From: a virus
IMG/VR virus record: IMGVR_UViG_3300032116_000291
Location: 1 to 52,040 of that record
Strand: one strand, 5' to 3'
Length of the DNA stretch: 52,040 nucleotides
Numbering within the stretch: the stretch's first letter is position 1; every line of letters starts with the position of its first letter. The position numbers were made by a program, and so were the translations under genes. The notes under the pieces are model-generated. The model had not been told where the DNA came from, made no database searches, and saw nothing but the letters and a program-made list of their open reading frames with translations. This document shows, piece by piece, positions 11,047 through 37,653 of the stretch.

Positions 11047-11107
11047 TTGATAATCAAAGACTTACATATGTAGGTCTTTTTTTATGCGTAACTAATTGAT
11101 TGTCAAT
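11047..11107 (+). promoter_or_regulatory. Operator cluster A (TTGA-N3-TCAA palindromes)
   Basis: Two copies of the palindrome TTGA-N3-TCAA, at 11047-11057 (spacer TAA) and 11096-11106 (spacer TTG). The second is embedded in the longer context GTAAC...GTTA seen at the other clusters. They flank the terminator at 11058-11083 and end 26 nt before the operon A promoter. Likely binding sites for a dimeric phage regulator. Confidence 0.6.
11058..11083 (+). terminator. Rho-independent terminator before operon A
   Basis: AGACTTACA and TGTAGGTCT form a nearly continuous stem around 11058-11076, followed by an eight-base T run. It separates the 8.1-11.0 kb unit from operon A. Confidence 0.8.
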
Positions 11108-11132
11108 GGGTTAAAAAATAGTTTAAAATTTT

Positions 11133-11164
11133 TTTGGCCATTTGAAAAAAAAGTCGTATATTTA
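11133..11164 (+). promoter_or_regulatory. Operon A promoter
   Basis: TTTG (11133-11136) and TATATTTA (11157-11164) are spaced by exactly 20 nt. The flanks TTTGGCCA and AAGTCGTATATTTAC match those of the promoters at 18014 and 37610. The start codon of the VWA gene is 36 nt downstream. Confidence 0.75.
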
Positions 11165-11200
11165 CATATATTCAAAAATTAATCACACAAATTTATTGTT

Positions 11201-13462
11201 ATGAGTTGGTACAAATCCGCAGTTGGTAAGGTGAAGAATTATGCTTCATCTTTTTGGTATGATGACTATGATACATCATTTGACTATCTTGAAGAATACG
11301 GGTCGTTCCAAAAGAAAGATTTGGATGCGTATAAAAAAACCCATAACCTTTACAAATTGGCATCGGTTCGTAGGGCTATTTCAAATTTCGTTCAAATCGT
11401 AACGAACAAATCTATTCCCGTTTCATTCGCAACAAAGAGTGATAGTAAAACGGATGGTAAGCGTGTTATCCTTTCCGCTGATGTGGATGATAACTTTGAC
11501 GTTTCGGTTGGGTTGGCATTACACGAAGGTTCACACATTGTACTTTCCGATTTTGAAATGTTGGCAGCACTATCCAACGTTAAAGGTGGTATAGAATCTC
11601 TGATTAGAAACATTCAATACCAAAAACAAAAAGCAGAACTTGAAGGAGCCGTTGATATCTACGATGAGAACTATGTTGCAAAATCAATATCGGATTTCAT
11701 TGATGGTAGATACCCAAAGTATTCATCTCAAATGAAAGATATTTATCTTACCACAGGTAAAGTTGGTAAGTATGGAAATCTAACGGATGAAGTACACAAT
11801 GTTATTCAGGGATTGACCAATTGGATTGAAGATAGACGTATTGATCATTACATATATAATTCCGCTCCTGGTTATAGAGATTATTATCTTTCTATGTATG
11901 AACATTATTTCAATGATAAATCTGTAACCAAAGGTATCAAATCCGATGAGTTTACGGAAGAAACGATTGATAGTTATATGTTCCGAATTATCAACCTATT
12001 GAATAGTGAAACAAATCTATCCAAACTGAAAGGACTTCGTACTATATATCGTATGTTGGATTTGAAGAACATCAGTAGATTGAAAACATCGCAAGATTCT
12101 CTAGAACTATCTATCAATATTGTTTCCGAAATACTGAAGCATGTTACGGAAAACCAACAACAAACCGGCGCAGGTAAGGGTAATGGTAACAACCCTGATG
12201 GACAACCACAAAATGGTGATGCGGATGTAAACGAAATGGGTGATGGTAATAACGATGATATGGGTGGTGCAAATGGTGATGCGAATGTGCAAGGTCAGAA
12301 TAGTTCGCAATCAACATCGACGCCCGATAGTGATGGTGAAGGAAAGGATATGTTATCTAAATCCGCTCTTCAATCTTTACTTAAAAAGTTCCAAAAGCAA
12401 AAAGACTTTCTTAATGGTAATCTGAAGAAGAAAACGATAACAAAGCAGGAGAGTGAGAAGTTGGAAGATATTCAGGAATCTGGTACGGAGTTGGTACGTG
12501 TTGGTTCTGATTATACACGTGATAATGGTACACCGATTGGTAAGGGTGTTGATTGTATCGTAGTGAAGAACCTTACACCCAAACTATTAGAGAGTTCGGA
12601 CTTTCCATTCACCAATAGACGTTGGTCAGAAGATGGAGTACATACACCATATATTGATGAAGTGAAGCGTGGTACTATGTTGGGTACTTTGTTGGGTAAG
12701 AAACTACAAATTCGTAATGAGAGTCGTGAAACAATATTCAGTAGATTGAAGAAGGGTAAGATTGATGGACGTATGGTTGCATCGCTTGGATTTGATAACG
12801 ATAATGTATTTTATCAACGTGATGTTGACCAATACAAAAAAGCAAACCTACATATCTCAATAGATTACTCCGGCTCAATGAGTGGTAGTAAGTTGAGAAA
12901 AGCGATTGTATCTACCGTCGCTATTGTTAAGGCTTGTGAAATGGCACGTAACATCAATACGCAAGTATCAATTCGTTCAACCGATAGTGGTAGTAGACCA
13001 TTGCCATACGTTGTATTAGTACACGATAGTCGTAAGAGTACATTCAAACAATTTGCTCACTATATGAGTGCACTTGAATGTACAAATACAACACCTGAAG
13101 GTTTGTGTTTTGAAGCAATTATGAAGGAACTTATCCCATCTACAAATGATACGGATAGTTATTTCTTAAACTTTTCGGATGGACAACCAACATACTCAAT
13201 TCACACAGGTAGTGATGAAATTAGTTATGGTGGTACAACTGCTGCAAAACATACCCGTAAGCAAGTGAAGAAGATGCAATCAAATGGTATGAGTATTCTT
13301 TCTTACTTTATTACGGAGTATAGTGAAGAACGTTTCCAACATTCATCCGATTGGGAAATATTCAGAGAGAGTTATGGACCCGATGCAAAATACATAAACG
13401 TAGAAAATATGTTTGAGGTTGCAAAAACGATGAACGAATTGTTCCTTAAAAAAGAGAGATAA
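11201..13462 (+). CDS. VWA-domain protein with HExxH site (CobT-like partner of AAA+ ATPase)
   Basis: A 753-aa protein in three parts. The N-terminal part has LALHEGSHIVLSD (H108, E109, H112), a zinc-peptidase-type motif. A Gly/Asn/Asp-rich low-complexity linker spans roughly residues 315-385. The C-terminal von Willebrand A domain has a full MIDAS: DYSGSMS (D555, S557, S559), the threonine near 630 in TNTTPEG, and D660 in SDGQPT. Pairing with the AAA+ ATPase just downstream matches CobS/CobT- and MoxR/VWA-type partnerships, in which the ATPase remodels a target and the VWA protein acts as adaptor. Such pairs occur in several large phages with unknown function. First gene of operon A. Confidence 0.85.
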   Translation: MSWYKSAVGKVKNYASSFWYDDYDTSFDYLEEYGSFQKKDLDAYKKTHNLYKLASVRRAISNFVQIVTNKSIPVSFATKSDSKTDGKRVILSADVDDNFDVSVGLALHEGSHIVLSDFEMLAALSNVKGGIESLIRNIQYQKQKAELEGAVDIYDENYVAKSISDFIDGRYPKYSSQMKDIYLTTGKVGKYGNLTDEVHNVIQGLTNWIEDRRIDHYIYNSAPGYRDYYLSMYEHYFNDKSVTKGIKSDEFTEETIDSYMFRIINLLNSETNLSKLKGLRTIYRMLDLKNISRLKTSQDSLELSINIVSEILKHVTENQQQTGAGKGNGNNPDGQPQNGDADVNEMGDGNNDDMGGANGDANVQGQNSSQSTSTPDSDGEGKDMLSKSALQSLLKKFQKQKDFLNGNLKKKTITKQESEKLEDIQESGTELVRVGSDYTRDNGTPIGKGVDCIVVKNLTPKLLESSDFPFTNRRWSEDGVHTPYIDEVKRGTMLGTLLGKKLQIRNESRETIFSRLKKGKIDGRMVASLGFDNDNVFYQRDVDQYKKANLHISIDYSGSMSGSKLRKAIVSTVAIVKACEMARNINTQVSIRSTDSGSRPLPYVVLVHDSRKSTFKQFAHYMSALECTNTTPEGLCFEAIMKELIPSTNDTDSYFLNFSDGQPTYSIHTGSDEISYGGTTAAKHTRKQVKKMQSNGMSILSYFITEYSEERFQHSSDWEIFRESYGPDAKYINVENMFEVAKTMNELFLKKER

Positions 13463-13464
13463 TC

Positions 13465-13492
13465 AAAAGGGGAGTTTGACTCCCCTTTTTTA
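13465..13492 (+). terminator. Intra-operon terminator/attenuator
   Basis: AAAAGGGGAGT and ACTCCCCTTTTTT form a strong hairpin with a T run between the VWA gene and the ATPase gene. No consensus promoter is visible between it and 13532, so it probably attenuates rather than fully ends operon A transcription. Confidence 0.75.
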
Positions 13493-13531
13493 ATAAAAAT
13501 AGTTTAATAATAAATCACCAAAAATTAAAAC

Positions 13532-14836
13532 ATGAAAAAGAAAATTGTCAGCAAAACTACTAAAACAAAAACTATGGCTCGTAAAACTGCAAAGCGTGTG
13601 AGTACACGTAAAAGTACTCGTAAGACAGTGGATACAAACATTGGATTCACAGATGAGTGTTACAAAAGTATTCAGATTGGACGTTCGTTTGCATTGATGA
13701 ATACCGCAGGTGATGTTACTCAAAAGGTTGCCGGTATCAGTAAGGCTAAAATGAAAGAAGCTCATACTGAAAACAAAGCACTTCGTGGATATGTGGGTAA
13801 GACTGGTAACGTAACCTACAAATTGGTTGAGATGGATGAATTCAAAAAGTTGGCTAATGTAATTGATGATAATGCGTGTGATAGTGTAAGTGAAGCATTT
13901 GAAACACATGATGCGTTGAAGCAGTTTATCCATGAGAAAGGTGCTGAACTGAAACCTGAAGGTTTGTTCATTGAATCATTGAAGTGGAAATATCTTCTTC
14001 GTTCAGCAGTACGTGGTAAGAACATTATGATGTTAGGCCCCACCGGTTGTGGTAAGACACTTGCCGCTCAATCATTGGTTAAATCCCTAAAGCGTCCTGA
14101 TTTCTATTTCAACTTGGGTGCTACGCAAGATGCCCGTGCTACCCTTATTGGTAACACACACTTTAACAAAGAGACCGGTACATTCTTTAGTGAATCGGCT
14201 TTCGTTAAAGCAATCAAAACTCCTAACGCAATCATTTTGCTTGACGAGTTGAGCCGTGCACATCCAGAAGCTGCAAATATCCTTATGACTGTGTTGGACC
14301 AGGGACAAAGGTATCTCCGTTTGGACGAGGCTATTGATTCACCTATCGTAAAAGTTGCAAGTGGTGTTACATTCATCGCAACCGCAAACGTAGGTAATGA
14401 GTACACCGCAACCCGTGTTATGGACCGAGCCCTTCTCGATCGTTTCGTAACTATTGAGATGGACCTGTTGGATAAGCAAAGTGAATATGAGTTGTTGAAA
14501 TTCAAATTCCCTGAAGCGGATGATTATTCATTGAACGCTCTCGCTGAAATCGCTGAAACAACCCGTCAACTTATCAAAACGGATATGAGTAAGGTTTCTA
14601 CCATTATCTCTACCCGTGTGAATGTTGAGGCTGCCGGACTCATCTATGATGGTTTCACATTGATGGAAGCAGCAGAGATTGCAATCCTTCCTTATTTCAG
14701 TAATGATGGTGGATTGGATAGTGAGCGTGTGTTTGTGAAACAACTTGTTCAGAAATATATTAAAACCGAAGACGGTTCTCAACTCTTCAATGAAGTGAAT
14801 GATGACCAATCCGCAGACGAAACTATTGTTTGGTAG
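13532..14836 (+). CDS. AAA+ ATPase, CobS/MoxR type
   Basis: A 434-aa AAA+ ATPase. A very basic N-terminus (residues 1-32, Lys/Arg/Thr-rich) may bind nucleic acid or a partner. Walker A is GPTGCGKT at 169-176 with K175. Walker B is AIILLDEL with D238 and E239. Sensor 1 is FIATANVGNEY, followed by the arginine region RVMDRALLDRF. The spacing and ATAN sensor fit the CobS/MoxR clade, which works with VWA proteins such as the preceding gene product. Role in the phage is unknown; protein remodelling or assembly is inferred. A shorter start at 13574 (MARKTAK) is possible. Confidence 0.9.
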   Translation: MKKKIVSKTTKTKTMARKTAKRVSTRKSTRKTVDTNIGFTDECYKSIQIGRSFALMNTAGDVTQKVAGISKAKMKEAHTENKALRGYVGKTGNVTYKLVEMDEFKKLANVIDDNACDSVSEAFETHDALKQFIHEKGAELKPEGLFIESLKWKYLLRSAVRGKNIMMLGPTGCGKTLAAQSLVKSLKRPDFYFNLGATQDARATLIGNTHFNKETGTFFSESAFVKAIKTPNAIILLDELSRAHPEAANILMTVLDQGQRYLRLDEAIDSPIVKVASGVTFIATANVGNEYTATRVMDRALLDRFVTIEMDLLDKQSEYELLKFKFPEADDYSLNALAEIAETTRQLIKTDMSKVSTIISTRVNVEAAGLIYDGFTLMEAAEIAILPYFSNDGGLDSERVFVKQLVQKYIKTEDGSQLFNEVNDDQSADETIVW

Positions 14837-14857
14837 TAGTTAATGGTGATTTGAAAA

Positions 14858-14890
14858 TTGGGGTGGCATTTGTCACCCCTTTTTCTTTTT
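14858..14890 (+). terminator. Rho-independent terminator after the ATPase gene
   Basis: GGGGTG (14860-14865) and CACCCC (14874-14879) form the stem, followed by a T-rich run. Readthrough must feed the following genes because no clear promoter is seen before 14906. Confidence 0.78.
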
Positions 14891-14905
14891 TTAAAATATG
14901 AAGAT

Positions 14906-15556
14906 ATGAATATAGATTACAAAATAACCGAAGTGAAACCAAATGTGTTTGCCGTTATTATAGAAAATAATTACGATAGAGCAATGATGTTTTGTAGAGT
15001 TCAGGAGTTTTATGAGTCACCTAATCCTAATTTTTGTGGAAAGCATTTTAGTATGTGGGATTATATGAAATGGTATAGTGAAGAATATGGTAGAGGTTTT
15101 AGTTATGGTAGTGATTGGAGTGGATTTAATATTCCGTTTGATGTGTTACACAATTGCTATGATAATATTGATAAATTTGAAACGCCATATGATGCCATTA
15201 TGTATAAAATATATTGGGAAATTCGTACAATGAAAGGTGATGGTAAAGCATATGTAATTGGTGCTGCAAATACGGAAGGTGATACATTCAAACATGAAAT
15301 ATGTCATGGATTATACTCAACGAATAAAAACTATAAATCATTCGTCAATGAGATAACCGATACAATACCATTGAAGGAATACACTACATTCAGAAACAAC
15401 CTTATTCAAATGGGATATACCGATAAAGTTATTGCTGATGAAATACAGGCGTATCTAACATTCGGACATGATTACCAAAAGTTCAATAATGGTGTAGATA
15501 AAAAACTTTGTAAAAACTTAAACAAAGAGTATATAAAAGTATTTAATAATTTTTAA
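14906..15556 (+). CDS. Putative zinc metallopeptidase (HEICH)
   Basis: A 216-aa soluble protein carrying TFKHEICHGLY (H130, E131, H134), the HExxH zinc motif, and a downstream ADEIQAY with E179 as plausible third ligand in a gluzincin-like arrangement. The N-terminal half is beta-rich and aromatic with no known domain. No signal peptide, so it would act in the host cytoplasm or virion. The longer reading from 14858 would overlap the terminator and was rejected. It follows the AAA+ gene, making a second HExxH protein in this operon. Confidence 0.7.
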   Translation: MNIDYKITEVKPNVFAVIIENNYDRAMMFCRVQEFYESPNPNFCGKHFSMWDYMKWYSEEYGRGFSYGSDWSGFNIPFDVLHNCYDNIDKFETPYDAIMYKIYWEIRTMKGDGKAYVIGAANTEGDTFKHEICHGLYSTNKNYKSFVNEITDTIPLKEYTTFRNNLIQMGYTDKVIADEIQAYLTFGHDYQKFNNGVDKKLCKNLNKEYIKVFNNF

Positions 15557-15567
15557 ATTTAAATGAT

Positions 15568-15732
15568 ATGCAAATAACAGATGAACAAAAGCAGGACATT
15601 CAAATGATTCTTTCAGATGCAAAGGATTGGGGAGTAGAAAAGCAAGTTGAGAAAAAAGCAAAAGAGTATATCAAAGAAGGACATGGTATAATTGATGCAT
15701 ACCATTACGCATTTGAAGATTGTATAAACTAA
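15568..15732 (+). CDS. Small helical protein (54 aa)
   Basis: Short gene encoding an acidic and lysine-rich helical peptide ending in AYHYAFEDCIN. Unknown. It fills the gap between the metallopeptidase and the next gene with tight spacing on both sides. Confidence 0.6.
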   Translation: MQITDEQKQDIQMILSDAKDWGVEKQVEKKAKEYIKEGHGIIDAYHYAFEDCIN

Positions 15733-15738
15733 TTTTTT

Positions 15739-16050
15739 ATGTTAAAAATTAAAAACAAAGAAAAAGTAATTGGTCACACATTTGTGAACGATAGATTTGT
15801 TTGTAAGAGTGTTCATGACGATGATGTATCATCTATAAGATTTCAGTTTGAAGATTTGGGTGCACCCACAAAGAGTTTTACTTGGATTGAAATGAGTAAG
15901 CACAAAGAGTGGGATAATCACGATAAAGATTGGTATTATAAATTAAGATATAGAAATGCTCCTGAACATAGAGTTACTTTGGATTATTTCAATCACATTC
16001 AAAATGTATTATCAACCTTTGAAGATGCACTAAAAACAACTATAAAATGA
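15739..16050 (+). CDS. Hypothetical protein (103 aa)
   Basis: Unrecognised soluble protein; beta-strand-rich N-terminus, charged His/Trp-rich middle (HKEWDNHDKDWYYKLRY near 55-71). Its last four bases overlap the start of the next gene. Confidence 0.65.
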   Translation: MLKIKNKEKVIGHTFVNDRFVCKSVHDDDVSSIRFQFEDLGAPTKSFTWIEMSKHKEWDNHDKDWYYKLRYRNAPEHRVTLDYFNHIQNVLSTFEDALKTTIK

Positions 16051-16370
16051 AATTAACAATTGAAAATATTGAAACGATTGAAGGTATCAGGGATCCAGTA
16101 GGATTGATACAAATCAGAAATGTTCACGTTAAACCAACAGAGTACCAAATCCTATTTTATAATGAACACTATTCGGGTAATTGGGAAGTTGTGATTTATA
16201 GATATAAAGAAAATGTTGGAGATAGTTACGATGTTGATTTTACCAATATTGATACATCTGGGAATTGGGAAAAATATACAATAGTAAACTATCAGATGAA
16301 GGATGTTGAAACATTCTTTGATTACCTTAATAATACTTGTCACGATTTTGATATTATACACAATAAATAA
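16047..16370 (+). CDS. Hypothetical protein (107 aa)
   Basis: Unrecognised soluble beta-rich protein, coupled by an ATGA overlap to the preceding gene. The pattern of alternating Tyr/Val/Ile strands and an acidic tail suggests a small globular fold. Confidence 0.65.
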   Translation: MKLTIENIETIEGIRDPVGLIQIRNVHVKPTEYQILFYNEHYSGNWEVVIYRYKENVGDSYDVDFTNIDTSGNWEKYTIVNYQMKDVETFFDYLNNTCHDFDIIHNK

Positions 16371-16378
16371 AAAAACAT

Positions 16379-17151: not shown

Positions 17152-17169
17152 AAATTAAAAACAAATAAC

Positions 17170-17865: not shown

Positions 17866-17993
17866 GCCTAACTCGTTGATTTTCAATGGGTTAGGCATAA
17901 CTCGTTGATTGTCAATGGAAAAAAAGTTTATTGACAATCAATGACTTACGCATTTAGGTTATAGGGGCAATTTCATAACTCGTTGATTGTCAA
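17866..17993 (+). promoter_or_regulatory. Operator cluster B (four TTGA-N3-TCAA palindromes)
   Basis: Four sites: 17876-17886 (spacer TTT), 17905-17915 (TTG), 17931-17941 (CAA, reverse orientation of TTG) and 17983-17993 (TTG). The first is extended by GCCTAAC (17866-17872) and GTTAGGC (17890-17896) into a 31-bp palindrome. Sites recur every 20-50 bp and stop 21 bp before the promoter. The region between 17818 and 18098 contains no gene. Confidence 0.65.
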
Positions 17994-18013
17994 TAAACTT
18001 TTTTTGATAAACA

Positions 18014-18045
18014 TTTGGCCAGTAACAAAAAAAGTCGTATCTTTA
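18014..18045 (+). promoter_or_regulatory. Operon B promoter
   Basis: TTTG (18014-18017) and TATCTTTA (18038-18045) are spaced by 20 nt within TTTGGCCAGTAAC and AAAAGTCGTATCTTTAC. The predicted 5' leader begins GAAGTAAAGTT, the same as at operon C, and includes a GGGG/CCCC hairpin (18074-18091) just before the start codon. Confidence 0.75.
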
Positions 18046-18098
18046 CGAAGTAAAGTTCAAATCAATTTTATAGAGGGGTGAATATTGCCCCATTTTTT

Positions 18099-18560
18099 AT
18101 GTCTAAAATGTATGTTATGAGTAAATTACACAAAATTACACCCAATCATTTGAGTAACCTATTTAATACTGATGGTAAAAAATTGAATGGTGCTCCGTTC
18201 ACAATTAAGAGTATGAAAACGGGCAAAGATTATACCTTCAAAATTTCACAGGTACCTTTCAAAGAAAAAAGTTTCATTCACATTAAAGTTGAAAAGGGTT
18301 ATTTGAACTTTGGGTATATTGGTTACTTTAAAGATGGTAACATTGTTCGTAGGCACAAAGTAACAAATCAATTGGAAACAATATCAACTCCCGCCGCAAC
18401 CGCAGTTGCTTGGTTGTTGAGACAATTGAGAGATATGAAATACGAATTACTCTCAAATAGTGTTGAAATATATCATTTGGGCAAATGTTTGAAATGTGGT
18501 AAAACACTTACCGATTCGGATAGTATTGAATATGGATTGGGACCTGTATGTAGGAACTAA
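18099..18560 (+). CDS. Protein with C-terminal zinc ribbon (DUF6011-like)
   Basis: A 153-aa protein whose C-terminus reads CLKCGKTLTDSDSIEYGLGP ending VC, a CxxC...C pattern (C130, C133, C151) typical of the DUF6011-type phage zinc ribbon. The fourth ligand is likely a histidine just upstream (H126 in IYHLGKC). The N-terminal 110 residues are beta-rich with basic patches, consistent with nucleic-acid binding, though not proven. The ATG at 18099 lies 12-18 nt before two other in-frame ATGs (18108, 18117), so the exact start is uncertain. First gene of operon B. Confidence 0.75.
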   Translation: MSKMYVMSKLHKITPNHLSNLFNTDGKKLNGAPFTIKSMKTGKDYTFKISQVPFKEKSFIHIKVEKGYLNFGYIGYFKDGNIVRRHKVTNQLETISTPAATAVAWLLRQLRDMKYELLSNSVEIYHLGKCLKCGKTLTDSDSIEYGLGPVCRN

Positions 18561-18608: not shown

Positions 18609-19424
18609 ATGAGTACAATGAAATTTACAACAATCGGTAATGCTAAAAAACAAACCGGTCTTTCTTATTTAGGTAGTGTGGCATCTTCATCTAAAATCGC
18701 TAAAGGTTTAAAGTATAATGAAGCTACATACATTTTGTATTTGGCACCGGCTTCAATGAGTGGTTACAATGTGTGTCCTATGAGTACCGAAGAATGTAGA
18801 ACGGCTTGTTTGAGTGAAAGTGGACACAATCGTATTGATGTTAAGAAGAACGCAATCAATAAAGCACGTATCGCTAAAACAAAGTTATTCTTTGAACATA
18901 GAGAATTCTTTATGGGTTGGTTAGTTACCGAAATTGAGAAAGCTAAATATCAAGCAGAAACAAATGGTATGAGATTTTCAGTTCGTATCAATGGTACATC
19001 TGATATTGAACCCACCCGTTTCCAACACAATGGTAAAGTATTGTTTGAATTGTTTGATGATGTTCAGTTCTATGATTATACGAAAGTAGCTAAACGATTT
19101 GGTTTATTACAATTCTATCCTAACTATGACTTAACATATTCATTCAGCGGGCACAATATGTTTCAATGTTTGGATTTGTTGAATAAAGGTAACGGACGTG
19201 TGGCTATGGTATTTGAAGGTAAAGTATTACCAACATCATTTATGGGTTACAAAGTAATTGATGGTGATGAATACGATATGAGATATTTGGATGAGCAAGG
19301 TGTTATCGTAGGTTTGAAGTTTAAGAAAGTTCGTAACAAAATTGATACAGCAAATAACGCATTCATCATTCCAATGGATTCTAAATTTAGTGTTTATGAA
19401 AAACAAAGTGAAAAGATTAAGTAA
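18609..19424 (+). CDS. Gp88-like phage protein
   Basis: A 271-aa protein resembling the mycobacteriophage Gp88 family. It has LAPASMSGYNVCPMS followed by ECRTACLSESG (near 46-75), a conserved three-cysteine region, and the later VRINGTSDIEP block (near 123-133). Those residues are characteristic of the family; the biochemical function is unknown. Second gene of operon B. Its 3' end overlaps the small ArfA-like gene, and a terminator-type hairpin follows 16 nt after its stop. Confidence 0.75.
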   Translation: MSTMKFTTIGNAKKQTGLSYLGSVASSSKIAKGLKYNEATYILYLAPASMSGYNVCPMSTEECRTACLSESGHNRIDVKKNAINKARIAKTKLFFEHREFFMGWLVTEIEKAKYQAETNGMRFSVRINGTSDIEPTRFQHNGKVLFELFDDVQFYDYTKVAKRFGLLQFYPNYDLTYSFSGHNMFQCLDLLNKGNGRVAMVFEGKVLPTSFMGYKVIDGDEYDMRYLDEQGVIVGLKFKKVRNKIDTANNAFIIPMDSKFSVYEKQSEKIK

Positions 19425-22490: not shown

Positions 22491-22700
22491 ATGAATTACA
22501 AAAATGTTATTTGTTGTAGTGGAAATGATTGTTCCAAAACAACGCAAGATGAAAACGCTTATGTAGAGTTGAGGTATGATGCGTATGGTATTCCGACACG
22601 ATATTATTGTGATGATTGTTATGAAAACAATTATCCATATCGTAAGGATGCATACTACGATTATCTAAACGCTGGTGAGTATTTAAATGATGATTATTAA
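22491..22700 (+). CDS. Small cysteine-rich protein (69 aa)
   Basis: Cysteines at CCSGNDC (8-14) and YYCDDCYE (residues 39-44) could form a zinc site. The C-terminus is rich in Tyr and Asp. Unknown function. Its 3' end is 10 nt before the chosen start of the SWIM gene. Confidence 0.6.
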   Translation: MNYKNVICCSGNDCSKTTQDENAYVELRYDAYGIPTRYYCDDCYENNYPYRKDAYYDYLNAGEYLNDDY

Positions 22701-22710
22701 AAATGAAAGT

Positions 22711-23046
22711 ATGAGATTCAAATCGTTCTATCCACCCATATCCTATAAAGGTGATATAAGTGGCAAGTGGTATGTTATATGTAGTTCTGATGGTGATGGT
22801 TGGGTTGAAGTTGATAGGAAGTATCAATGGAGTGAGTTGGAAAAGCTTTGGGATAAGATTCAGTATGGTTCACCAAAAACAATGGCAAAAACCAAAGTGA
22901 AAAAAGAATACAAAGTTGATGGTAGTAAAGGAAATGTGTATAGTGTAGTGAACGATGATGGGTTTTGGAGTTGTAGTTGTCCTGCACATGGATTCGGACG
23001 TGGTAAAGATTGTAAACATATTAAACAAATTAAAAATGAAATATAG
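22711..23046 (+). CDS. SWIM zinc-finger protein (111 aa)
   Basis: The C-terminus is a SWIM-type zinc finger: WSCSCPAHGFGRGKDCKHIK (CxC, then CxH). SWIM domains bind DNA or proteins. The N-terminal 60 residues are beta-rich with aromatic residues. A second SWIM protein with nearly the same C-terminal pattern is at 26475. An upstream ATG at 22687 would overlap the previous gene; 22711 keeps a normal spacing. The next gene starts inside its last codons. Confidence 0.75.
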   Translation: MRFKSFYPPISYKGDISGKWYVICSSDGDGWVEVDRKYQWSELEKLWDKIQYGSPKTMAKTKVKKEYKVDGSKGNVYSVVNDDGFWSCSCPAHGFGRGKDCKHIKQIKNEI

Positions 23047-26236: not shown

Positions 26237-26500
26237 ATGGAAACAATAGGTTATTTAGGTGGATTGTTATTAGCAATTTGTGGAATACCCGAAGTTATAC
26301 GAACAATCAAAGATAAGAGATGCCATTTAGGATGGGCATTTTTATTGTTATGGTTTTTCGGTGAAGTGTTTATGGAAATATACGCATTCGCACTTTGGGA
26401 TTTTCCACTATTGTTTAATTATACATTCAATTTGGTATTGGTTGGAATTATGTTATTTTATAAATTAAAAAATTATGGGACAGTATTACAAAATCGTTAA
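26237..26500 (+). CDS. PQ-loop/SemiSWEET-like membrane protein (87 aa)
   Basis: Three hydrophobic helices (about 3-20, 30-54, 58-80). A GIPEVIRTIKDKRCHLGW segment after the first helix fits the PQ-loop signature position. The size matches bacterial SemiSWEETs, which dimerise to carry sugars, but transport is only an inference from layout. Its 3' end overlaps the next gene by 26 nt. Confidence 0.55.
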   Translation: METIGYLGGLLLAICGIPEVIRTIKDKRCHLGWAFLLLWFFGEVFMEIYAFALWDFPLLFNYTFNLVLVGIMLFYKLKNYGTVLQNR

Positions 26501-27071
26501 TGTAAAGAAAAAAGAATACATCACACCACATATATTTGGTGATGGTGCAAAGTTGATGGAGTTCAGTATGTCGGCAAGTGGTGTGTTGGCTGGATTAGCA
26601 ATACTACTTGCAGATGGAAATGGTAGAGGTGGTGGTGACCTTAATAGTGATAATGAAATTGTAGGTAGTTGGGCAGGTGATAATATTGTTATTGCCGGTG
26701 ATTACGCTGATCATGGTAAGTTTGTGAAAATACCTGAACAAAATTTGTACGAAGTTTGTCAGGCGGAAGGTGAGGATATTTCATTGAAAGTATTAGAAGC
26801 ACTTTTTGATGACAGATATTTCTTTGAAGAGTTTAGAAAAAATAGAACAGGTTGGGCAGATGATGAAGTGAAACAATTGGTTGATAAAAAACTAAAAGAG
26901 AAAGGTTTGAAAAATCCACAAGGATGGAGTGTACCATCATCAAAAGACCCAAATGTAAGATACAAAGTAACTGAAGATAATGGGACATGGGAATGCGATT
27001 GTCCATCATTCACATATACAGGTGGTAAAGAGTGTAAACATATTAAAGAAATAAAATCATCAAACATATGA
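26475..27071 (+). CDS. SWIM zinc-finger protein with conserved N-terminal domain (198 aa)
   Basis: The N-terminal domain (1-90) begins MGQYYKIVN and includes HIFGDGAKLMEF and SWAGDNIVIAGDYAD, a module of unknown function that I have seen in other phages. The C-terminus is a SWIM finger: WECDCPSFTYTGGKECKHIK. The same C-terminal arrangement ends the protein at 22711. DNA or protein binding is likely. Confidence 0.72.
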   Translation: MGQYYKIVNVKKKEYITPHIFGDGAKLMEFSMSASGVLAGLAILLADGNGRGGGDLNSDNEIVGSWAGDNIVIAGDYADHGKFVKIPEQNLYEVCQAEGEDISLKVLEALFDDRYFFEEFRKNRTGWADDEVKQLVDKKLKEKGLKNPQGWSVPSSKDPNVRYKVTEDNGTWECDCPSFTYTGGKECKHIKEIKSSNI

Positions 27072-31135: not shown

Positions 31136-31139
31136 AAAT

Positions 31140-31200: not shown

Positions 31201-31206
31201 ATTCAT

Positions 31207-31383: not shown

Positions 31384-31386
31384 AAA

Positions 31387-31818: not shown

Positions 31819-31834
31819 TAAATAAATTGGTTTT

Positions 31835-32065: not shown

Positions 32066-32070
32066 ATAAT

Positions 32071-32385: not shown

Positions 32386-32396
32386 ATTTATATCAA

Positions 32397-32609
32397 ATGA
32401 ATATGACTTACGATTGCCACGGAAAAACGCACTCTGAAGTTAAAGAGGATTTTGAAAATTGGATTTTAATGAATCAAACGGAATTACCAATACAGGTAAT
32501 AACAGGCAATTCCGAACATATGAAACGGATTGTAATGGGTATTTTGGATTTTTATGACTTCACATATTCGGAATCATTTACAAATTCCGGAGTAATTAAA
32601 ATATATTGA
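32397..32609 (+). CDS. Smr-like small protein (70 aa)
   Basis: Contains DCHGKTHSEVKEDFENW (residues 6-22) followed by IQVITGNSEHMKR, resembling the DLHG...TG order of Smr domains that nick DNA or bind RNA. The domain is shorter than usual and lacks a complete HGKG turn, so the assignment is tentative. ATG 32397 or 32403. Confidence 0.5.
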   Translation: MNMTYDCHGKTHSEVKEDFENWILMNQTELPIQVITGNSEHMKRIVMGILDFYDFTYSESFTNSGVIKIY

Positions 32610-32610
32610 T

Positions 32611-32808
32611 ATGACACCATTGGAAAAATTTATTGAGTATTTAGGACCTGAAATATTGAAAGCACATAACATTAAATACTTTTTAGAGTTAGAGGAAAAA
32701 ACAATTAAGGATGCGATTATGTATTCGTTGGATGAAGATGGGCATACGGGTGATTGGAAAATAGGATTCGCAAATGAATACTATAATAAATTAAAAGTAA
32801 AAGAATAA
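32611..32808 (+). CDS. Hypothetical helical protein (65 aa)
   Basis: Unrecognised small acidic helical protein. Spacing of one base before and three after implies co-translation with the stomatin-like gene. Confidence 0.6.
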   Translation: MTPLEKFIEYLGPEILKAHNIKYFLELEEKTIKDAIMYSLDEDGHTGDWKIGFANEYYNKLKVKE

Positions 32809-32811
32809 GTT

Positions 32812-33342
32812 ATGTTTGATAAACTAATACAAATGATTCAGCAATTTGGAAAGGATATGTTACCTTTCGTTATTGTTGAGGAATGGAATGAAGCAGTTCT
32901 ATTAAGATTTGGAAAATATAAATGTGTACTAAAAGCCGGAATCCATTTTAAGATTCCGTTTTTTGATTCAGTAATTGAGCACGCAGTAATTACACAATCG
33001 GTTAATCTACCTGCACAGACACTAACTACATTGGATGAAAAGGAAATTGTACTCAAAGCAATAATCCGATACAAAGTATTTGATGTGAAAAAATTCTTAT
33101 TGAGTGTAATGCATGCAAATGATGTTCTAATTGATACTACGCAGGGAATGATTAGAGATATTGTTGAAGTAACTAATTGGGAAGATTTAGTTGATGTTAA
33201 TTATCGAATAACAAATGAGGTATTGGAGTTTGTAGAAAAATGGGGAATAGAAATTGAGGCAATAACCATAACTGATTTGGGTATTGTAAAAACATATCGT
33301 ATATTGGGTGAAGATACAAAACAAATTTTACCAATTGAATAA
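32812..33342 (+). CDS. SPFH/band-7 (stomatin/prohibitin-like) domain protein (176 aa)
   Basis: The domain runs from EEWNEAVLLRFGKYKCVLKAGIHFKIPFFDSV (segmented) through a beta-strand array to the conserved RDIVEVTNWEDLVDVN and the later GIEIEAITITDLGIVKTYRI. This is the SPFH fold found on membrane-associated oligomers. There is no obvious long transmembrane helix at the N-terminus, unlike host stomatins, so it may be soluble or peripherally bound. In phages SPFH proteins are rare and of unknown role. Confidence 0.75.
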   Translation: MFDKLIQMIQQFGKDMLPFVIVEEWNEAVLLRFGKYKCVLKAGIHFKIPFFDSVIEHAVITQSVNLPAQTLTTLDEKEIVLKAIIRYKVFDVKKFLLSVMHANDVLIDTTQGMIRDIVEVTNWEDLVDVNYRITNEVLEFVEKWGIEIEAITITDLGIVKTYRILGEDTKQILPIE

Positions 33343-33353
33343 ACCGAATTTAA

Positions 33354-33659
33354 ATGATTACGATAAAAAACTATGGCAAGTTATTTCGTAAAGATGTGGG
33401 GCAATGGAGGGTAAGTAGAATTGAGGAAGAAAAATCATTTTATCAAATAACCTTAATCAAAGTTGATGGTGAAAAGGTATCTGTAAATTTAGAAAGGAGT
33501 GGAATAAATACTACATCAAACAAAGAATACGAAATGTGGTATTGGAAGGGAATGACTAACAATCCTAATTATGCATTACCTGAAAGGTTATTGTTAAAAG
33601 CGGAACAATTGAATACAATAGATAAATTCACTAACGCACTCAATTCTTTATTGAAGTAA
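33354..33659 (+). CDS. Hypothetical protein (101 aa)
   Basis: Unrecognised basic protein; beta-rich first half and a helical second half ending FTNALNSLLK. It is followed by an unusual G/C-rich spacer. Confidence 0.6.
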   Translation: MITIKNYGKLFRKDVGQWRVSRIEEEKSFYQITLIKVDGEKVSVNLERSGINTTSNKEYEMWYWKGMTNNPNYALPERLLLKAEQLNTIDKFTNALNSLLK

Positions 33660-33666
33660 AAATCAG

Positions 33667-33703
33667 AGGGGGGCTCGGGGGGAACAACCCGTCGTTCCGC
33701 CCA
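33667..33703 (+). other. G/C-rich inverted repeat in spacer
   Basis: The 119-nt spacer holds two runs of five or more G, and GGGGGGAAC pairs with GTTCCGCCC around the loop AACCCGTC. This is much richer in G/C than surrounding sequence. It could form a hairpin or G-rich structure; no known family. Confidence 0.4.
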
Positions 33704-33715
33704 AATTTTTTGATA

Positions 33716-33746
33716 GTGGGGAATAACTTATTCCCCATTTTTATTT
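33716..33746 (+). terminator. Rho-independent terminator
   Basis: GGGGAATAA (33718-33726) and TTATTCCCC (33728-33736) form a near-perfect stem followed by a T-rich stretch (ATTTTTATTTT). Confidence 0.8.
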
Positions 33747-33775
33747 TGTAAAGTGAAAAAAAAATCCTATATTAG
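33745..33775 (+). promoter_or_regulatory. Bacteroidota-type promoter, probably leaderless
   Basis: TTTG (33745-33748) and TATATTAG (33768-33775) are spaced by 19 nt; the -7 core has one mismatch. The ATG of the next gene is at 33780, four nt after the core, so the mRNA likely begins at the start codon. Confidence 0.5.
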
Positions 33776-33779
33776 AGGT

Positions 33780-34664
33780 ATGATAGAAACAAATGAAAAT
33801 TGGAGGGATTACTTAAAACCTATAGCATCTTATTTGATGGATAGAGTTAGGAGTAGTGCAAAACCTTCAACTAAAAAAAATAATAATGATTGGGGCAGAG
33901 ATTTTGCGTGGGATATCGATATTGATGAGGAGTACCTTATTGAGTTATTAATTGAATCAGAATTTAAGTGCGCATTGACAGGAATGAAATTTCCTATTTC
34001 AAACAATTACAAAAAATGTAAAAGTAGATTATGGATGCCATCAGTAGATAGGGTAGAACCATTGATACCTTATTTAAGAGGAAACATTCAAATAGTTTGT
34101 CTTGGAATTAACTTAATGAAGTCCAGATACGATAATGAACTTACAAAAGAATTTTTGAGTGAAATGAATGAAATAGCAAATGGAAATGAAGTACAAAGGA
34201 GAATAGAAATATTTGAAAATAAAAAAACAACAAAAACAAAAACAATGAATAAGAGTACAATTAACAATGAAATGCTGAAGTATCTTTTGGACAATTCCGA
34301 ATTTGGAATAGAGTATGCTGAAAAATACTTTGAAGAGAAGGTAGGAAACACCAAAAAGAAAAACAAAGAGGTAACAAAAGGGGATTCAGTTTCTAAAAGT
34401 GAAAAAACACCGGCGGATGTTAGAAAAGAATGGTTAATAAATAATTCTATTGATATTGAACAACCAACTGAATCAATGGTAGAATTGAGATATGTAATTA
34501 GCCCAGTACCAAAAGACAATGATGCTCTTTACAGAAAGAAAGAATTGGATGCCGTAATCAATCAAGGATTAAGTATATATAAGATGCGAAGTAAACGTGG
34601 GTATAAATACTATACCGATGAATCGCAAATCAAAAAAGGGGTTGGGGAAAATAGTGTCGAATAA
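33780..34664 (+). CDS. HNH-like endonuclease with basic/acidic C-terminal extension (294 aa)
   Basis: Residues 50-125 resemble an HNH/treble-clef nuclease domain: FKCALTGM, then LWMPSVDRVEP and YLRGNIQIVCLGINLMKS. The D-R...GNI...N..K order is that of HNH enzymes in which zinc-binding cysteines are reduced. Residues 150-294 form a lysine/glutamate-rich extension with an ordered end. The first cysteine pair seems incomplete, so cleavage activity is not certain. It starts at a leaderless-type promoter. Confidence 0.65.
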   Translation: MIETNENWRDYLKPIASYLMDRVRSSAKPSTKKNNNDWGRDFAWDIDIDEEYLIELLIESEFKCALTGMKFPISNNYKKCKSRLWMPSVDRVEPLIPYLRGNIQIVCLGINLMKSRYDNELTKEFLSEMNEIANGNEVQRRIEIFENKKTTKTKTMNKSTINNEMLKYLLDNSEFGIEYAEKYFEEKVGNTKKKNKEVTKGDSVSKSEKTPADVRKEWLINNSIDIEQPTESMVELRYVISPVPKDNDALYRKKELDAVINQGLSIYKMRSKRGYKYYTDESQIKKGVGENSVE

Positions 34665-34682
34665 GGAAAATTTTTTGATAGT

Positions 34683-34790
34683 ATGAAAGAGATATTTATT
34701 TTTATAGGAATGTGGATAGGAATTCTATTCATTGGATTAATAGTAAGTAAATTTGATAAAGGAAAAACAAAAATGGATTGGTATGAATAA
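34683..34790 (+). CDS. Tiny membrane peptide (35 aa)
   Basis: One hydrophobic helix (about 4-22, IFIFIGMWIGILFIGLIV) with a lysine-rich tail. It overlaps the next gene by eight nt. Confidence 0.48.
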   Translation: MKEIFIFIGMWIGILFIGLIVSKFDKGKTKMDWYE

Positions 34791-35007
34791 CGAAATCAAA
34801 AACACCGTGTTTGGATCTTACAAAGAGTTTGTAATTATTGAAAGGGAATCATTGAGGGAGTTAGAGGAAAAGGGAAAAGCAATATTAGCAGAGGGGCAAG
34901 ATGAACATGATAAATTTCAAATACAAAAAGGTAAAACAATATTGGAATGTGTTGAATGGATGAAGCAATGGAATATTTATAATAACGAATTCAAAATAAA
35001 AGGATAA
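34783..35007 (+). CDS. Hypothetical helical protein (74 aa)
   Basis: Unrecognised; helical with charged residues and a C/W-containing C-terminus (ILECVEWMKQWNIY). The start 34783 was chosen over an upstream ATG at 34753 that is buried in the preceding gene. Confidence 0.6.
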   Translation: MNNEIKNTVFGSYKEFVIIERESLRELEEKGKAILAEGQDEHDKFQIQKGKTILECVEWMKQWNIYNNEFKIKG

Positions 35008-35011
35008 TAAA

Positions 35012-35113
35012 ATGGAAACACTAATAGAAGTGACCACCTATATATTCTATACAATAGCAGCAAGTATTGTATTTATAGGATTGGCAGATTTGTATAAGAA
35101 AAGAAAAAAGTAA
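35012..35113 (+). CDS. Tiny membrane peptide (33 aa)
   Basis: Single hydrophobic helix (about 8-26) and a Lys/Arg tail (YKKRKK). Spacing of four nt on both sides is consistent with a real gene. Confidence 0.48.
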   Translation: METLIEVTTYIFYTIAASIVFIGLADLYKKRKK

Positions 35114-35116
35114 GTT

Positions 35117-35458
35117 ATGAATCATTCAAAGAAAATACAAATCCTAAATCCAGGATGTATAAATAGTTACAATCAATTACCCAATGGAAAGCATGTGAGT
35201 ATTTTACATCTTAATACTACGGGTGATTGGTTTAAATTTGAAATGAGTAATGGAGAGGTACTATACGATATTTTTGTTTTCAGATGGATACAGAATAGTG
35301 GGGTTATGAAGTGTGAAGCATTTGATAAAAGTTCAACCGCAAGATCTCCAAAGTATATGTTTAACGTACCTTATAATACATTTCGTAAAAAGAGTTCGTT
35401 TCAGGATCACTTAATCGATTGGTTTGAGAATACCGTTTCAAATGGTGCATTAATTTGA
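35117..35458 (+). CDS. Hypothetical protein (113 aa)
   Basis: Unrecognised beta-rich soluble protein with basic segments. It ends four bases before the GT-A-like gene start. Confidence 0.62.
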   Translation: MNHSKKIQILNPGCINSYNQLPNGKHVSILHLNTTGDWFKFEMSNGEVLYDIFVFRWIQNSGVMKCEAFDKSSTARSPKYMFNVPYNTFRKKSSFQDHLIDWFENTVSNGALI

Positions 35459-35462
35459 TAGC

Positions 35463-36170
35463 ATGAATAAATGGGCGTTTACGTTTCTTGCGATGGGTGA
35501 TGAACATATCCGAGAGTTTAATATAGTTGCAAAAACCATATTGAATATCCATCCCGACCATAAAATAATTGTAGGCACGGATAATCCAAACGGATTAATA
35601 GATGGGTTGTATAAAGTGATCCCTATTTCGGAAGGGTTTAATTATAATTTAAAACGAATACCTATTCAACATGCTCTAAAAGAATTCAATACAATATTTC
35701 ACTTGGACACGGATGTGCACATTAGGGATGGGATAGATTTTTCGATAATGGACTCCGTTGCGGAAGGTCCGGAAGGTTTGTGGGTTGAAGATATTGTACC
35801 ACCGGAAAGTCAGCATAGGAATGGTTCAATAGAATGGATAAGGGATTATTTAGATAAGTTGAAAGTATGGGTAGGGGATGAAAACTTTTATCTTATACCC
35901 GAAGGTCGTTTCATCCTAAAATCCAATCCCGAAAATGTAAATACGATAATCGAAATGTGGGAAACTATTGATAGGGATACGAGAGAGGTACAACCCGAAC
36001 AATACGAATTGAATGGAGCAATGGAAGGTTTTATAATATGGATTAGTGTAACAAAAGCCGGAATACCAATAAAAAAAGTTTGGAGTGTAGGTGGGGATTT
36101 TACTAAATTGTTTCACACCACAGTGCACTTTGCAAGAGATAATAGAAAACTAATAGCAACAATGCTATAA
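35463..36170 (+). CDS. GT-A-type glycosyltransferase-like protein (235 aa)
   Basis: Begins with a Rossmann-like KWAFTFLAMGD segment, followed by HKIIVGTDNP, then FHLDTDVHI with the DxD metal/nucleotide-sugar motif (DTD near residue 81), then WVEDIVPP. This is the pattern of GT-A transferases of uncharacterised family. The acceptor is unknown. It precedes a putative esterase, forming a small glycan-modification pair before the 850-nt spacer. Confidence 0.68.
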   Translation: MNKWAFTFLAMGDEHIREFNIVAKTILNIHPDHKIIVGTDNPNGLIDGLYKVIPISEGFNYNLKRIPIQHALKEFNTIFHLDTDVHIRDGIDFSIMDSVAEGPEGLWVEDIVPPESQHRNGSIEWIRDYLDKLKVWVGDENFYLIPEGRFILKSNPENVNTIIEMWETIDRDTREVQPEQYELNGAMEGFIIWISVTKAGIPIKKVWSVGGDFTKLFHTTVHFARDNRKLIATML

Positions 36171-36208
36171 TCAAATCGGAAAACCCAGATAAAATAAATT
36201 CAGCAAAG

Positions 36209-36838
36209 ATGAAAATAAGAACTTGGGGATGTTCAATTACTACAGGGTATGGAATGAACACTACATATACAAACGTATTAAGCGATACACTACAATGTGA
36301 AGGTATAAACACAAGTAAAGATGGAATAGGGAACGATTGGATATTTCATAACATAGTAGAATATCTGAATAGTGTAGAAACCGAAACCGAAGATTGGCAT
36401 ATAGTACAATGGAGTGGACCAATGAGAAGGTTACATCAAAGTATTAGTGGAAAGGAATGGACGGTGTATCCTGATGTAGGGGATTCGAATGGATTAGGTC
36501 CGAAATGGGAACCAATGGGATCCAAACACACACTACACTACATGTACTGCGTTCAAGAATTATTCCAAACGAAAGGAATACGGAACTGGATATTTTGGAA
36601 TTACTTCCCGTTAGATGAATCCGTAAAAGGATTAAATACATACAACGGAATCGAATGGAATAATTTTGTAGATATTGATAGGGCGTGGATGATAAAAAAT
36701 AATTACGTTTGGGATGGAGAAGATGGAGGGCATCCGAATATAGAAGGCATATATTGGATAGCAAATACATTATTAAATAAAATGGGTTACAATATTAAAT
36801 TAGAATATAAGGATTACAAATACAGAGGGGTTATATAG
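36209..36838 (+). CDS. SGNH/GDSL-type hydrolase-like protein (209 aa)
   Basis: MKIRTWGCSITTG places a catalytic-type serine in the GCS(I/F)T.G block I motif (S9). GIGNDW is near 39-44 and DGGHPNIEG, near residue 180, supplies the D/H pair of block V. These are the marks of SGNH hydrolases that remove acyl groups from sugars or lipids. No signal peptide. Neighbouring GT-A-like gene suggests glycan O-acyl editing, but the substrate is unknown. It has a leader ATAAATTCAGCAAAG also found before 41827. Confidence 0.68.
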   Translation: MKIRTWGCSITTGYGMNTTYTNVLSDTLQCEGINTSKDGIGNDWIFHNIVEYLNSVETETEDWHIVQWSGPMRRLHQSISGKEWTVYPDVGDSNGLGPKWEPMGSKHTLHYMYCVQELFQTKGIRNWIFWNYFPLDESVKGLNTYNGIEWNNFVDIDRAWMIKNNYVWDGEDGGHPNIEGIYWIANTLLNKMGYNIKLEYKDYKYRGVI

Positions 36839-37320
36839 TAAGTATATCAATCAATACTATATCAAAATAAAAAACGAAATGGTAAATAGTGGTAAAAAGT
36901 GGGGAATTGTGTTAAAGAGTGGTAACTAAAAGTATCTGTCAAAATCTATTCATTACATACTAACATACTACAATAAAAACATAACACTATAAAAGTATAT
37001 CATTATAAGTTCAAAAGTCCCACCTGCGTTCACACTGCGCAACAAATTCCGGCAAAGGGGAAAACGAGATTAGTGGATTGCGCAGAGGTGAGTGCGGTGA
37101 GTGGTGCGCAGTGGTGTGAATTGAAGTAATAAATTTTCACTTTGGATCCGGCGCAAGGAAACGCAATACTGGTCTACGTTTCCTGAAGATACGAAAAATA
37201 AATGTAATTGCCAAATCTCCGGCAATATAGACCTGGTCCACGCTACATGGGTATTCTTTAGAAAATATTTATTTCACGACGTGTCCGAAATAGAAAACAT
37301 CTAATAAAAGCATTGCGTAA
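36839..37320 (+). other. Non-coding region with GC-rich inverted repeat
   Basis: From 36839 to 37688 no gene is evident. The first 180 nt are AT-rich with repeated AGTGG(T/G) units (36885-36930). TTCACAC-TGCGCA (37029-37041) and TGCGCA-GTG-GTGTGAA (37105-37120) form a long inverted repeat within a GC-rich block (37015-37260). Beyond it the sequence is patchy, with GATCCGGC and CCGGC segments. It could be a structured RNA, a replication origin region or a mobile regulatory segment; none is established. Confidence 0.4.
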
Positions 37321-37324
37321 TTGA

Positions 37325-37589
37325 TTGATTTTCAATGGGTTGTATAAACGATTGATTATCAGCGTGTTATGAGTGGAATATATAATATATTATGTTAAGT
37401 AGGGAACGTGTTGAGTATCAATGCGTTATGCAAGAAAAACCCGCATTTTACCGATAATTGATATTATGTTAAATAAAAAACGGGCAACGAGTTGACAATC
37501 AACGAGTTATGTTTTTAAAAATTCTTTATTGACAATCAATTAGTTACGCAACCCAGTCCGGCCCCATTTCATAACTCGTTGATTGTCAA
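37325..37589 (+). promoter_or_regulatory. Operator cluster C (TTGA-N3-TCAA palindromes)
   Basis: Sites at 37325-37335 (TTT), 37411-37421 (GTA), 37492-37502 (CAA), 37529-37539 (CAA) and 37579-37589 (TTG) are perfect TTGA-N3-TCAA palindromes; 37352-37362 is the same with the last base changed to G. They share the longer context (ATAACTCGTTGATTGTCAAT) with cluster B. This is the densest cluster and ends 21 bp before the operon C promoter. Confidence 0.65.
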
Positions 37590-37653
37590 TAAACTTTTTT
37601 TTCAAAATGTTTGGCCAGTAACTTAAAAAGTCGTATCTTTACGAAGTAAAGTT
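37525..37653 (+). repeat. Near-duplicate of the operon B control region
   Basis: This 129-nt block aligns with 17927-18057 through TTTATTGACAATCAAT, then TTTCATAACTCGTTGATTG, then the promoter and a GAAGTAAAGTT leader. Differences are few outside a 20-nt internal stretch. The two copies drive different genes 19.6 kb apart. Confidence 0.8.
37610..37641 (+). promoter_or_regulatory. Operon C promoter
   Basis: TTTG (37610-37613) and TATCTTTA (37634-37641), spacing 20 nt, within TTTGGCCAGTAAC and AAAAGTCGTATCTTTAC, the same block as at 18014. The first gene starts 47 nt after the -7 core. Confidence 0.75.

What the first reader, a model, noticed from the sequence alone, without database searches (positions are those of the whole stretch)
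11047..37653. Palindromic TTGA-N3-TCAA operator family controlling three operons
Seen in sequence: palindromes occur in clusters of two, four and six (one of the six imperfect) just upstream of three promoters that share TTTGGCC...AAGTCGTATmTTTAC with identical 20-nt spacing. Between clusters I saw no comparable groups. Spacer triplets TTG/CAA/TTT/TAA/GTA are free, as expected for a dimeric binding site. Inference: a phage-encoded regulator coordinates the ATPase/VWA operon, the Gp88/zinc-ribbon operon and the 37.7-kb operon, probably one early regulon. Iterons of an origin are the alternative.
Basis: partly seen in the sequence, partly recalled or inferred. Interest (0 to 1): 0.85.

Follow-up and report, generated by a model that had tools for sequence, protein, structure and literature searches.

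The report
Phage terminator-palindrome-promoter boundary cassettes
Three operons of this Bacteroidota phage each begin with the same little cassette (an end-of-transcript signal, several copies of a 25-letter mirror-image DNA site, then a host-type promoter), and the same mirror-image site recurs in unrelated phages and, in a few bacteria, in most gaps between genes, so an unidentified but widespread DNA-binding protein probably reads it.

Summary
All three clusters (2, 4 and 6 sites) are present, far beyond chance, and sit just upstream of three promoters with identical 20-nt spacing. The unit is longer than reported: a 25-bp palindrome, TAACTCRTTGATWNTCAAYGAGTTA. The three other TTGAN3TCAA matches lie inside genes and lack the outer arms.

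Relatives keep clusters at the orthologous operons: Gp88 29/29 close loci, VWA/ATPase 14/15, the 37.7-kb gene 4/4. Across eight phages 67 of 70 sites near matching promoters lie upstream of the -33 box and none lies on the promoter, which has the Bacteroidota sigma-ABfr form. At the first cluster a covarying intrinsic terminator overlaps one site. The palindrome itself does not covary, so it looks like a double-stranded protein site, not a hairpin. The unit is therefore a terminator-operator-promoter cassette, most like T4-type PeSLs.

The same palindrome, often paired 50 bp apart around a hairpin, occurs in many unrelated viral contigs and at tens to thousands of intergenic copies in some Cytophagales genomes. 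That, with no recognisable regulator among 42 conserved phage proteins, weakens "phage-encoded regulator"; a host-encoded binder is at least as likely. The iteron reading is not supported. The direction of regulation and the protein are unknown.

The parts
11040..11064 (.). palindrome site 1a (cluster 1, upstream of the VWA/ATPase operon)
   Evidence: orthologous site in 14/15 close loci
11056..11079 (+). intrinsic terminator hairpin (AAAGACTTACATATGTAGGTCTTT then T-run); its 5' arm is the right arm of site 1a
   Evidence: 5 of 10 pairs with compensatory changes, 0/500 shuffles; RNA fold z -5.2
11089..11113 (.). palindrome site 1b
11133..11165 (+). Bacteroidota-type promoter TTTGGCC..TCGTATATTTAC
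   Evidence: consensus TTTG/TAnnTTTG from PMC7366714
11201..13462 (+). 753-aa VWA-like protein, first gene of operon 1
   Evidence: (weak PHROG matches), DYSGSMS
13532..14836 (+). MoxR/CbbQ-type AAA ATPase
   Evidence: AAA_5 E 2.7e-18
17869..17893 (.). palindrome site 2a (extends to GCCTAAC..GTTAGGC)
17898..17922 (.). palindrome site 2b
17919..18005 (.). 30-bp inverted repeat formed by sites 2c and 2d with A-tract and T-tract flanks; terminator-like
   Evidence: z -7.1 (76-nt fragment); weak covariation (4 of 30 pairs, 97/500 shuffles)
17924..17948 (.). palindrome site 2c
17976..18000 (.). palindrome site 2d, nearest the promoter
18014..18046 (+). promoter 2 TTTGGCC..TCGTATCTTTAC
18078..18560 (+). 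DUF6011 zinc-ribbon-like protein (start codon uncertain)
   Evidence: PF19474 E 1.2e-9
18609..19424 (+). GP88 family protein
   Evidence: PF17338 E 1.4e-35; cluster upstream in 29/29 loci at >=77% identity
37318..37342 (.). palindrome site 3a
37345..37369 (.). palindrome site 3b (the imperfect one)
37404..37428 (.). palindrome site 3c
37485..37509 (.). palindrome site 3d
37522..37546 (.). palindrome site 3e
37572..37596 (.). palindrome site 3f, nearest the promoter
37610..37642 (+). promoter 3 TTTGGCC..TCGTATCTTTAC; its ~140-bp cassette is 83% identical to that of cluster 2
37689..38063 (+). 124-aa protein of unknown function, first gene of operon 3
   Evidence: orthologues in G002, G007, G038 also follow a cluster

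Best explanation
Each cluster is a composite transcription-boundary cassette: terminator of the preceding operon, several copies of a 25-bp double-stranded DNA-binding palindrome, then a host sigma-ABfr-type promoter for the next operon. A homodimeric DNA-binding protein, more probably host-encoded (or shared by host and phage) than unique to this phage, binds each palindrome through two half-sites (TAACY..TTGA) and acts from upstream of the promoter (most site centres about 17-100 bp upstream of the -33 box), as an activator or as an insulating roadblock that works together with the terminator. Because the cassettes are similar to each other they may also exchange or duplicate by recombination, as PeSLs do in T4-type phages. 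Shown: sites, promoters, the first terminator, conservation, upstream position, lack of hairpin covariation in the window's clade. Inferred: that a protein binds, that it is host-encoded, upstream action and its sign, insulation, cassette exchange.
For: 25-bp motif and leave-one-out test. Clusters conserved at orthologous operons. Thirty of 70 clusters have a strict TTTG-N18-21-TAnnTTT promoter within 120 bp downstream on the + strand against 2% expected; 67 of 70 sites near such promoters are upstream, none at 0 to +50. Terminator hairpin covaries while the palindrome in the same alignment has no compensatory change; half-sites vary independently in 211 low-GC sites. In a 245-kb relative the 14 sites fall in 7 clusters within one ~50-kb stretch if the contig is circular, all intergenic apart from one unassigned at a piece end. 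Three relatives with the same ATPase family but 0-1 site have 22 such promoters and none with sites. Pairs ~50 bp apart in other contigs enclose hairpin-forming spacers (mean z -1.6 against -0.3 in controls). Chromosomal copies in Cytophagales. No known regulator among 42 conserved phage proteins.
Against: No binding or expression data. In GC-richer contigs half-sites covary mildly (z 2.3-3.7) and in genome G439 two positions covary, so a structural role there is not excluded. 67 of 101 matching promoters have no sites. The phage's host is unknown and most Bacteroidota lack the motif. A clear T-run terminator was shown only at cluster 1; clusters 2 and 3 show terminator-like inverted repeats, with weak covariation where tested. 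Pfam cannot see unknown regulator folds.
Confidence: 0.6

Rival explanations
1. Classical phage-encoded regulon: a phage repressor or activator, not seen because it lies outside the 52-kb window or in an unknown family, binds the palindromes and times the three operons together.
For: Clusters restricted to one region of large relatives and to a subclade; position at promoters; 386 of 395 Bacteroidota genomes have no strict copy.
Against: No recognisable DNA-binding regulator among 42 proteins restricted to site-bearing relatives; the same palindrome in unrelated viral contigs and Cytophagales chromosomes; sites never overlap the promoter, which is unusual for a repressor.
Confidence: 0.25
2. 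Dispersed repeat (REP- or MITE-like palindrome) with no regulatory role, tolerated in intergenic gaps.
For: Similar density in tandem, divergent and convergent gaps of genome G042, ~1 site per kb; tandem 25-bp arrays in viral contigs.
Against: In the window's phages, tight placement upstream of promoters and presence at orthologous operons while individual sites turn over; a high-copy genome has no Y1_Tnp match (G439: 153 copies, none).
Confidence: 0.1
3. RNA-level element: palindromes act as transcribed hairpins (terminators, processing sites).
For: Terminator overlaps site 1a; strong folds of paired sites; mild covariation in GC-richer contigs.
Against: No covariation of the palindrome itself in the window's clade; mismatched arm positions kept in 11-12 of 12 orthologues; in chromosomes also found in divergent gaps that carry no transcript end.
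Confidence: 0.12
4. Iterons of a replication origin.
For: Repeated sites; a single site lies in the gap before a RepL-like gene in crAssphage.
Against: Three to seven clusters spread over about 25-50 kb, most at operon starts; G-C skew keeps one sign across the window; site number and spacing turn over.
Confidence: 0.03

Closest known systems
PeSL (promoter-early stem-loop) mobile regulatory cassettes of T4-type phages (Arbiol 2010; Comeau 2014; both cited in PMC4503421; details from memory, the papers are not held)
   Same: Terminator stem-loop directly followed by a host-type promoter, repeated in a variable region; similar cassettes before unrelated genes; cassette present or absent between the same two genes in relatives.
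   Different: Here a conserved 25-bp double-stranded binding palindrome recurs in 2-6 copies, the promoter is sigma-ABfr type, and the palindrome is shared with unrelated phages and some bacterial chromosomes.
REP / BIME repeats with RAYT transposases
   Same: Palindromic, intergenic, high copy in some genomes, sometimes paired.
   Different: No Y1_Tnp in a genome with 153 copies; half-sites vary independently in the phage clade; also in divergent gaps; promoter-linked in phages.
Mycobacteriophage L5-type stoperators (from memory)
   Same: Many copies of a regulator site in short intergenic gaps of a phage.
   Different: Stoperators are asymmetric and bound by a phage repressor; these are palindromic and sit upstream of promoters.
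Restriction-modification C-protein boxes, GACT-N3-AGTC (from memory)
   Same: Two tetramers around a 3-bp centre, often in tandem pairs.
   Different: Sequence differs and there are additional outer TAAC/GTTA contacts; no C-protein gene found.

Membership tests
PeSL-type cassette | stem-loop terminator upstream of the promoter | tested here: met
   cluster 1 clearly; clusters 2-3 only terminator-like inverted repeats
PeSL-type cassette | host-type early promoter | tested here: inconclusive
   Bacteroidota consensus promoter present; early timing not testable
PeSL-type cassette | recombination between cassettes shuffles genes | tested here: inconclusive
   cassettes 2 and 3 83% identical before unrelated genes; gene or cassette gain/loss next to them in relatives; no direct recombinants shown
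Phage operator regulon (phage-encoded regulator) | regulator gene in the phage | tested here: inconclusive
   none found in window or among 42 restricted proteins; the whole genome of this phage is not available
Phage operator regulon (phage-encoded regulator) | sites at promoters, conserved at orthologous operons | tested here: met
REP/RAYT | associated Y1 transposase | tested here: not met
   G439, 153 copies, no PF01797 match
REP/RAYT | imperfect hairpin with conserved 5' tetranucleotide tag | tested here: not met
   sites are symmetric, no tag; no hairpin covariation in phage clade
Replication iterons | single local array at an origin | tested here: not met
   three clusters spread over 26 kb here, up to 7 clusters in relatives, tied to promoters
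Bacteroidota sigma-ABfr promoter | TTTG at -33 and TAnnTTTG at -7 | tested here: met
   TTTG-N20-TAnnTTTAC in all three; last base A rather than G
any DNA-binding site | bound by a protein in vitro or in vivo | not testable with these tools
   needs EMSA or DNA pull-down

The most novel reading that the evidence does not exclude
The 25-bp palindrome TAA-N4-TTGA-N3-TCAA-N4-TTA is the site of an undescribed, widely distributed bacterial chromosome-boundary or insulator protein (about 1 site per kb, in intergenic gaps of every orientation, in one Cytophagales genome), and large phages have built it into terminator-promoter cassettes to insulate or activate their operons with a host protein.
Probability: 0.25. 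Interest if true: 0.82.

Novelty: new variant of a known kind. Interest (0 to 1): 0.58.

Why it matters
Little seems to be known of how large uncultured Bacteroidota phages control transcription. This gives a testable cis-element, its exact sequence, its position relative to promoter and terminator, and conservation at three operons. It also links a phage element to a chromosomal palindrome present at up to thousands of copies in some Cytophagales, which the literature searches here did not turn up; finding its binding protein would explain both.

Tried and rejected
RAYT/REP association: rejected by G439. Phage-encoded regulator by presence/absence across 16 relatives and other site-bearing contigs plus Pfam/PHROGs: nothing DNA-binding. 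Named phages: no similar DNA over 7.4 kb; the palindrome alone gives single sites in crAss-like phages and about three weaker sites in Bacteroides phage BT638P6; most Vibrio, cyanophage and plasmid hits look like chance. Literature searches for the sequence or for Bacteroidota phage palindromic promoters found nothing relevant; the PeSL papers themselves are not held. Helical phasing of the site-to-promoter distance: no single phase. Simple repression by promoter occlusion is disfavoured because no site overlaps a promoter. Integron attC and serine/tyrosine recombinase sites were considered and dropped from general knowledge: 3-bp centre, no matching R boxes, no cassette-array logic in the window.
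Full report
WHAT WAS CLAIMED AND WHAT IS THERE. The exact core occurs 14 times in the window against 2.65 expected, and no shuffle reached 14. Eleven occurrences form the three clusters, and the sixth member of the last cluster is the imperfect 37352. The remaining three exact matches (14495, 16529, 24294) are isolated, inside genes, and lack the features described next. With one mismatch allowed the core alone is no longer enriched (63 against 56 expected), so the specificity lies in a longer unit.

THE REAL UNIT IS 25 BP. Aligning the 12 cluster sites shows conserved outer arms: TAACTCRTTGATWNTCAAYGAGTTA. With a matrix built without the tested site, each site scores 16.0-28.0 bits and nothing else in the window exceeds 11.0; among 50 mononucleotide shuffles the best chance hit reached 18.3, so the two weakest sites (37352, 37529) also rely on their position. 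A matrix from 283 distinct sites of other viral contigs is the same: TAA/TTA and TTGA/TCAA nearly invariant, the linker TCR/YGA variable, the central base A or T in 92%.

PROMOTERS AND TERMINATORS. The three promoters TTTGGCC..TCGTATmTTTAC (TTTG at 11133, 18014, 37610; 20 nt to the TA) fit the Bacteroidota sigma-ABfr consensus TTTG at -33 and TAnnTTTG at -7 (PMC7366714), except that the last base is A. In the window and ten other site-bearing contigs, 30 of 70 clusters have a strict match downstream within 120 bp on the + strand, against 2% expected. In the window and seven of those relatives, 67 of 70 sites near such promoters lie upstream of the -33 box, with groups near -26 to -42 and -65 to -86, and none lies at 0 to +50. 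At cluster 1 an intrinsic terminator (11056-11079 plus T-run) uses the right arm of the first site as its own 5' arm. Across 12 orthologues this hairpin shows compensatory changes at 5 of 10 pairs, 0/500 shuffles, whereas the palindrome itself in the same alignment shows none and keeps mismatched arm positions. In relatives that carry an extra cassette between the VWA and ATPase genes, the order is again gene end, site, T-run hairpin, site, promoter. Clusters 2 and 3 contain long inverted repeats with A- and T-tract flanks; at cluster 2 their covariation is weak, so a terminator there is likely but not shown.

DOUBLE-STRANDED SITE, NOT HAIRPIN. If the palindrome were needed as a hairpin, its variable linker positions should covary between arms. 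In 211 distinct sites from low-GC contigs they do not (z about 0 at the linker positions); in 192 sites from GC-richer contigs there is mild covariation (z 2.3-3.7). The window's clade therefore behaves like two independent half-sites of a dimeric protein; a structural role elsewhere is not excluded.

CONSERVATION. They do not lack them. All 29 GP88 loci at 77% identity or more (some from near-identical contigs) have sites within 900 bp upstream, against 0 of 11 at 56% or less. For the VWA/ATPase operon the figures are 14 of 15 loci at 70% or more and 4 of 37 below. All four loci with the 37.7-kb gene have them. Site number and spacing turn over while the cluster stays. In a 245-kb relative there are only 14 sites, in 7 clusters confined to about 50 kb if the contig is circular, none found inside a gene; three relatives of the same ATPase family have 0-1 site. 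The cassettes of clusters 2 and 3 are 83% identical over 139 bp although the genes behind them are unrelated.

WIDER DISTRIBUTION. The palindrome is in many other viral contigs (the scan stopped at its 120-stretch limit), with spacing peaks at exactly 25 bp (abutting sites) and 50 bp. Pairs about 50 bp apart enclose a spacer that folds better than shuffles (mean z -1.6, controls -0.3) and is on average 14 points richer in GC than its contig, which is the same site-hairpin-site order as at cluster 1. crAssphage and the related phage cr8_1 have single sites in the gap between late and early gene blocks. In bacteria, 386 of 395 sampled Bacteroidota genomes have no strict copy. A relaxed form occurs at tens to thousands of copies in a number of Cytophagales genomes (2128 in G042, 153 in G439, 113 in G602; reversed-pattern control 0-2) and at most 6 in the 295 other genomes of a phylum-wide sample. 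In a 198-kb sample of G042 the density is similar in tandem, divergent and convergent gaps and 30-fold lower in genes. G439 has no Y1 transposase match, so REP/RAYT is not a sufficient account.

MECHANISM. Best reading: transcription-boundary cassettes of terminator, dimer-bound sites and promoter. Because sites lie upstream of, never on, the promoter, activation or insulation from upstream is favoured over simple repression, at roughly two to one (a judgement, not a measurement). The binder is more likely host-encoded or shared than private to this phage: the site exists in chromosomes and unrelated phages, and 42 proteins restricted to site-bearing relatives include no recognisable DNA-binding regulator. 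This remains inference; the host of this phage is unknown and Pfam cannot recognise unknown folds.

COMPARISON AND NOVELTY. The architecture resembles PeSL cassettes of T4-type phages (cited in PMC4503421; the primary papers are not held). It works like them in part, but the recombination hallmark was not shown directly, and the conserved multi-copy 25-bp binding palindrome is an addition for which I know of no precedent. I therefore call it a new variant of a known kind. The most novel reading still open is an undescribed intergenic boundary protein of Cytophagales that phages exploit.

Noticed in passing
Microscillaceae MAG (L250, L253, L257, L259; sample loci L395-L414): About one relaxed palindrome per kb, intergenic, in every gene orientation: 2128 relaxed and 503 strict exact copies in 6.8 Mb.
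   Followed up: partly
L020, L060, L067, L072, L073, L075: Viral contigs with arrays of palindrome pairs about 50 bp apart around GC-rich hairpins, repeated roughly every 0.5-1.5 kb between small genes, in L020 often followed by sigma-70-like promoters.
   Followed up: partly
BK010471 (crAssphage) about 95982-96006; MT774384 about 64098-64122: Single copies of the palindrome in the non-coding gap between late and early gene blocks, next to a RepL-like gene in crAssphage.
   Followed up: partly
window 1-8000 and 39804: Sixteen tRNA genes, together with a HAD_SAK_2 protein (1346-1870) and a cyclic-phosphate-processing receiver protein (9056-9547) that suggest RNA repair.
   Followed up: no
window 36840-37310: About 470 bp of apparently non-coding sequence with a GC-richer block directly before cluster 3; no Rfam match.
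   Followed up: no
window 22687-23046 and 26475-27071: Two proteins with similar SWIM-like zinc finger C-terminal ends, possibly paralogues.
   Followed up: no
window 17866-17896: Site 2a extends to a longer near-perfect palindrome, GCCTAACTCGTTGATTTTCAATGGGTTAGGC, than the other sites.
   Followed up: no
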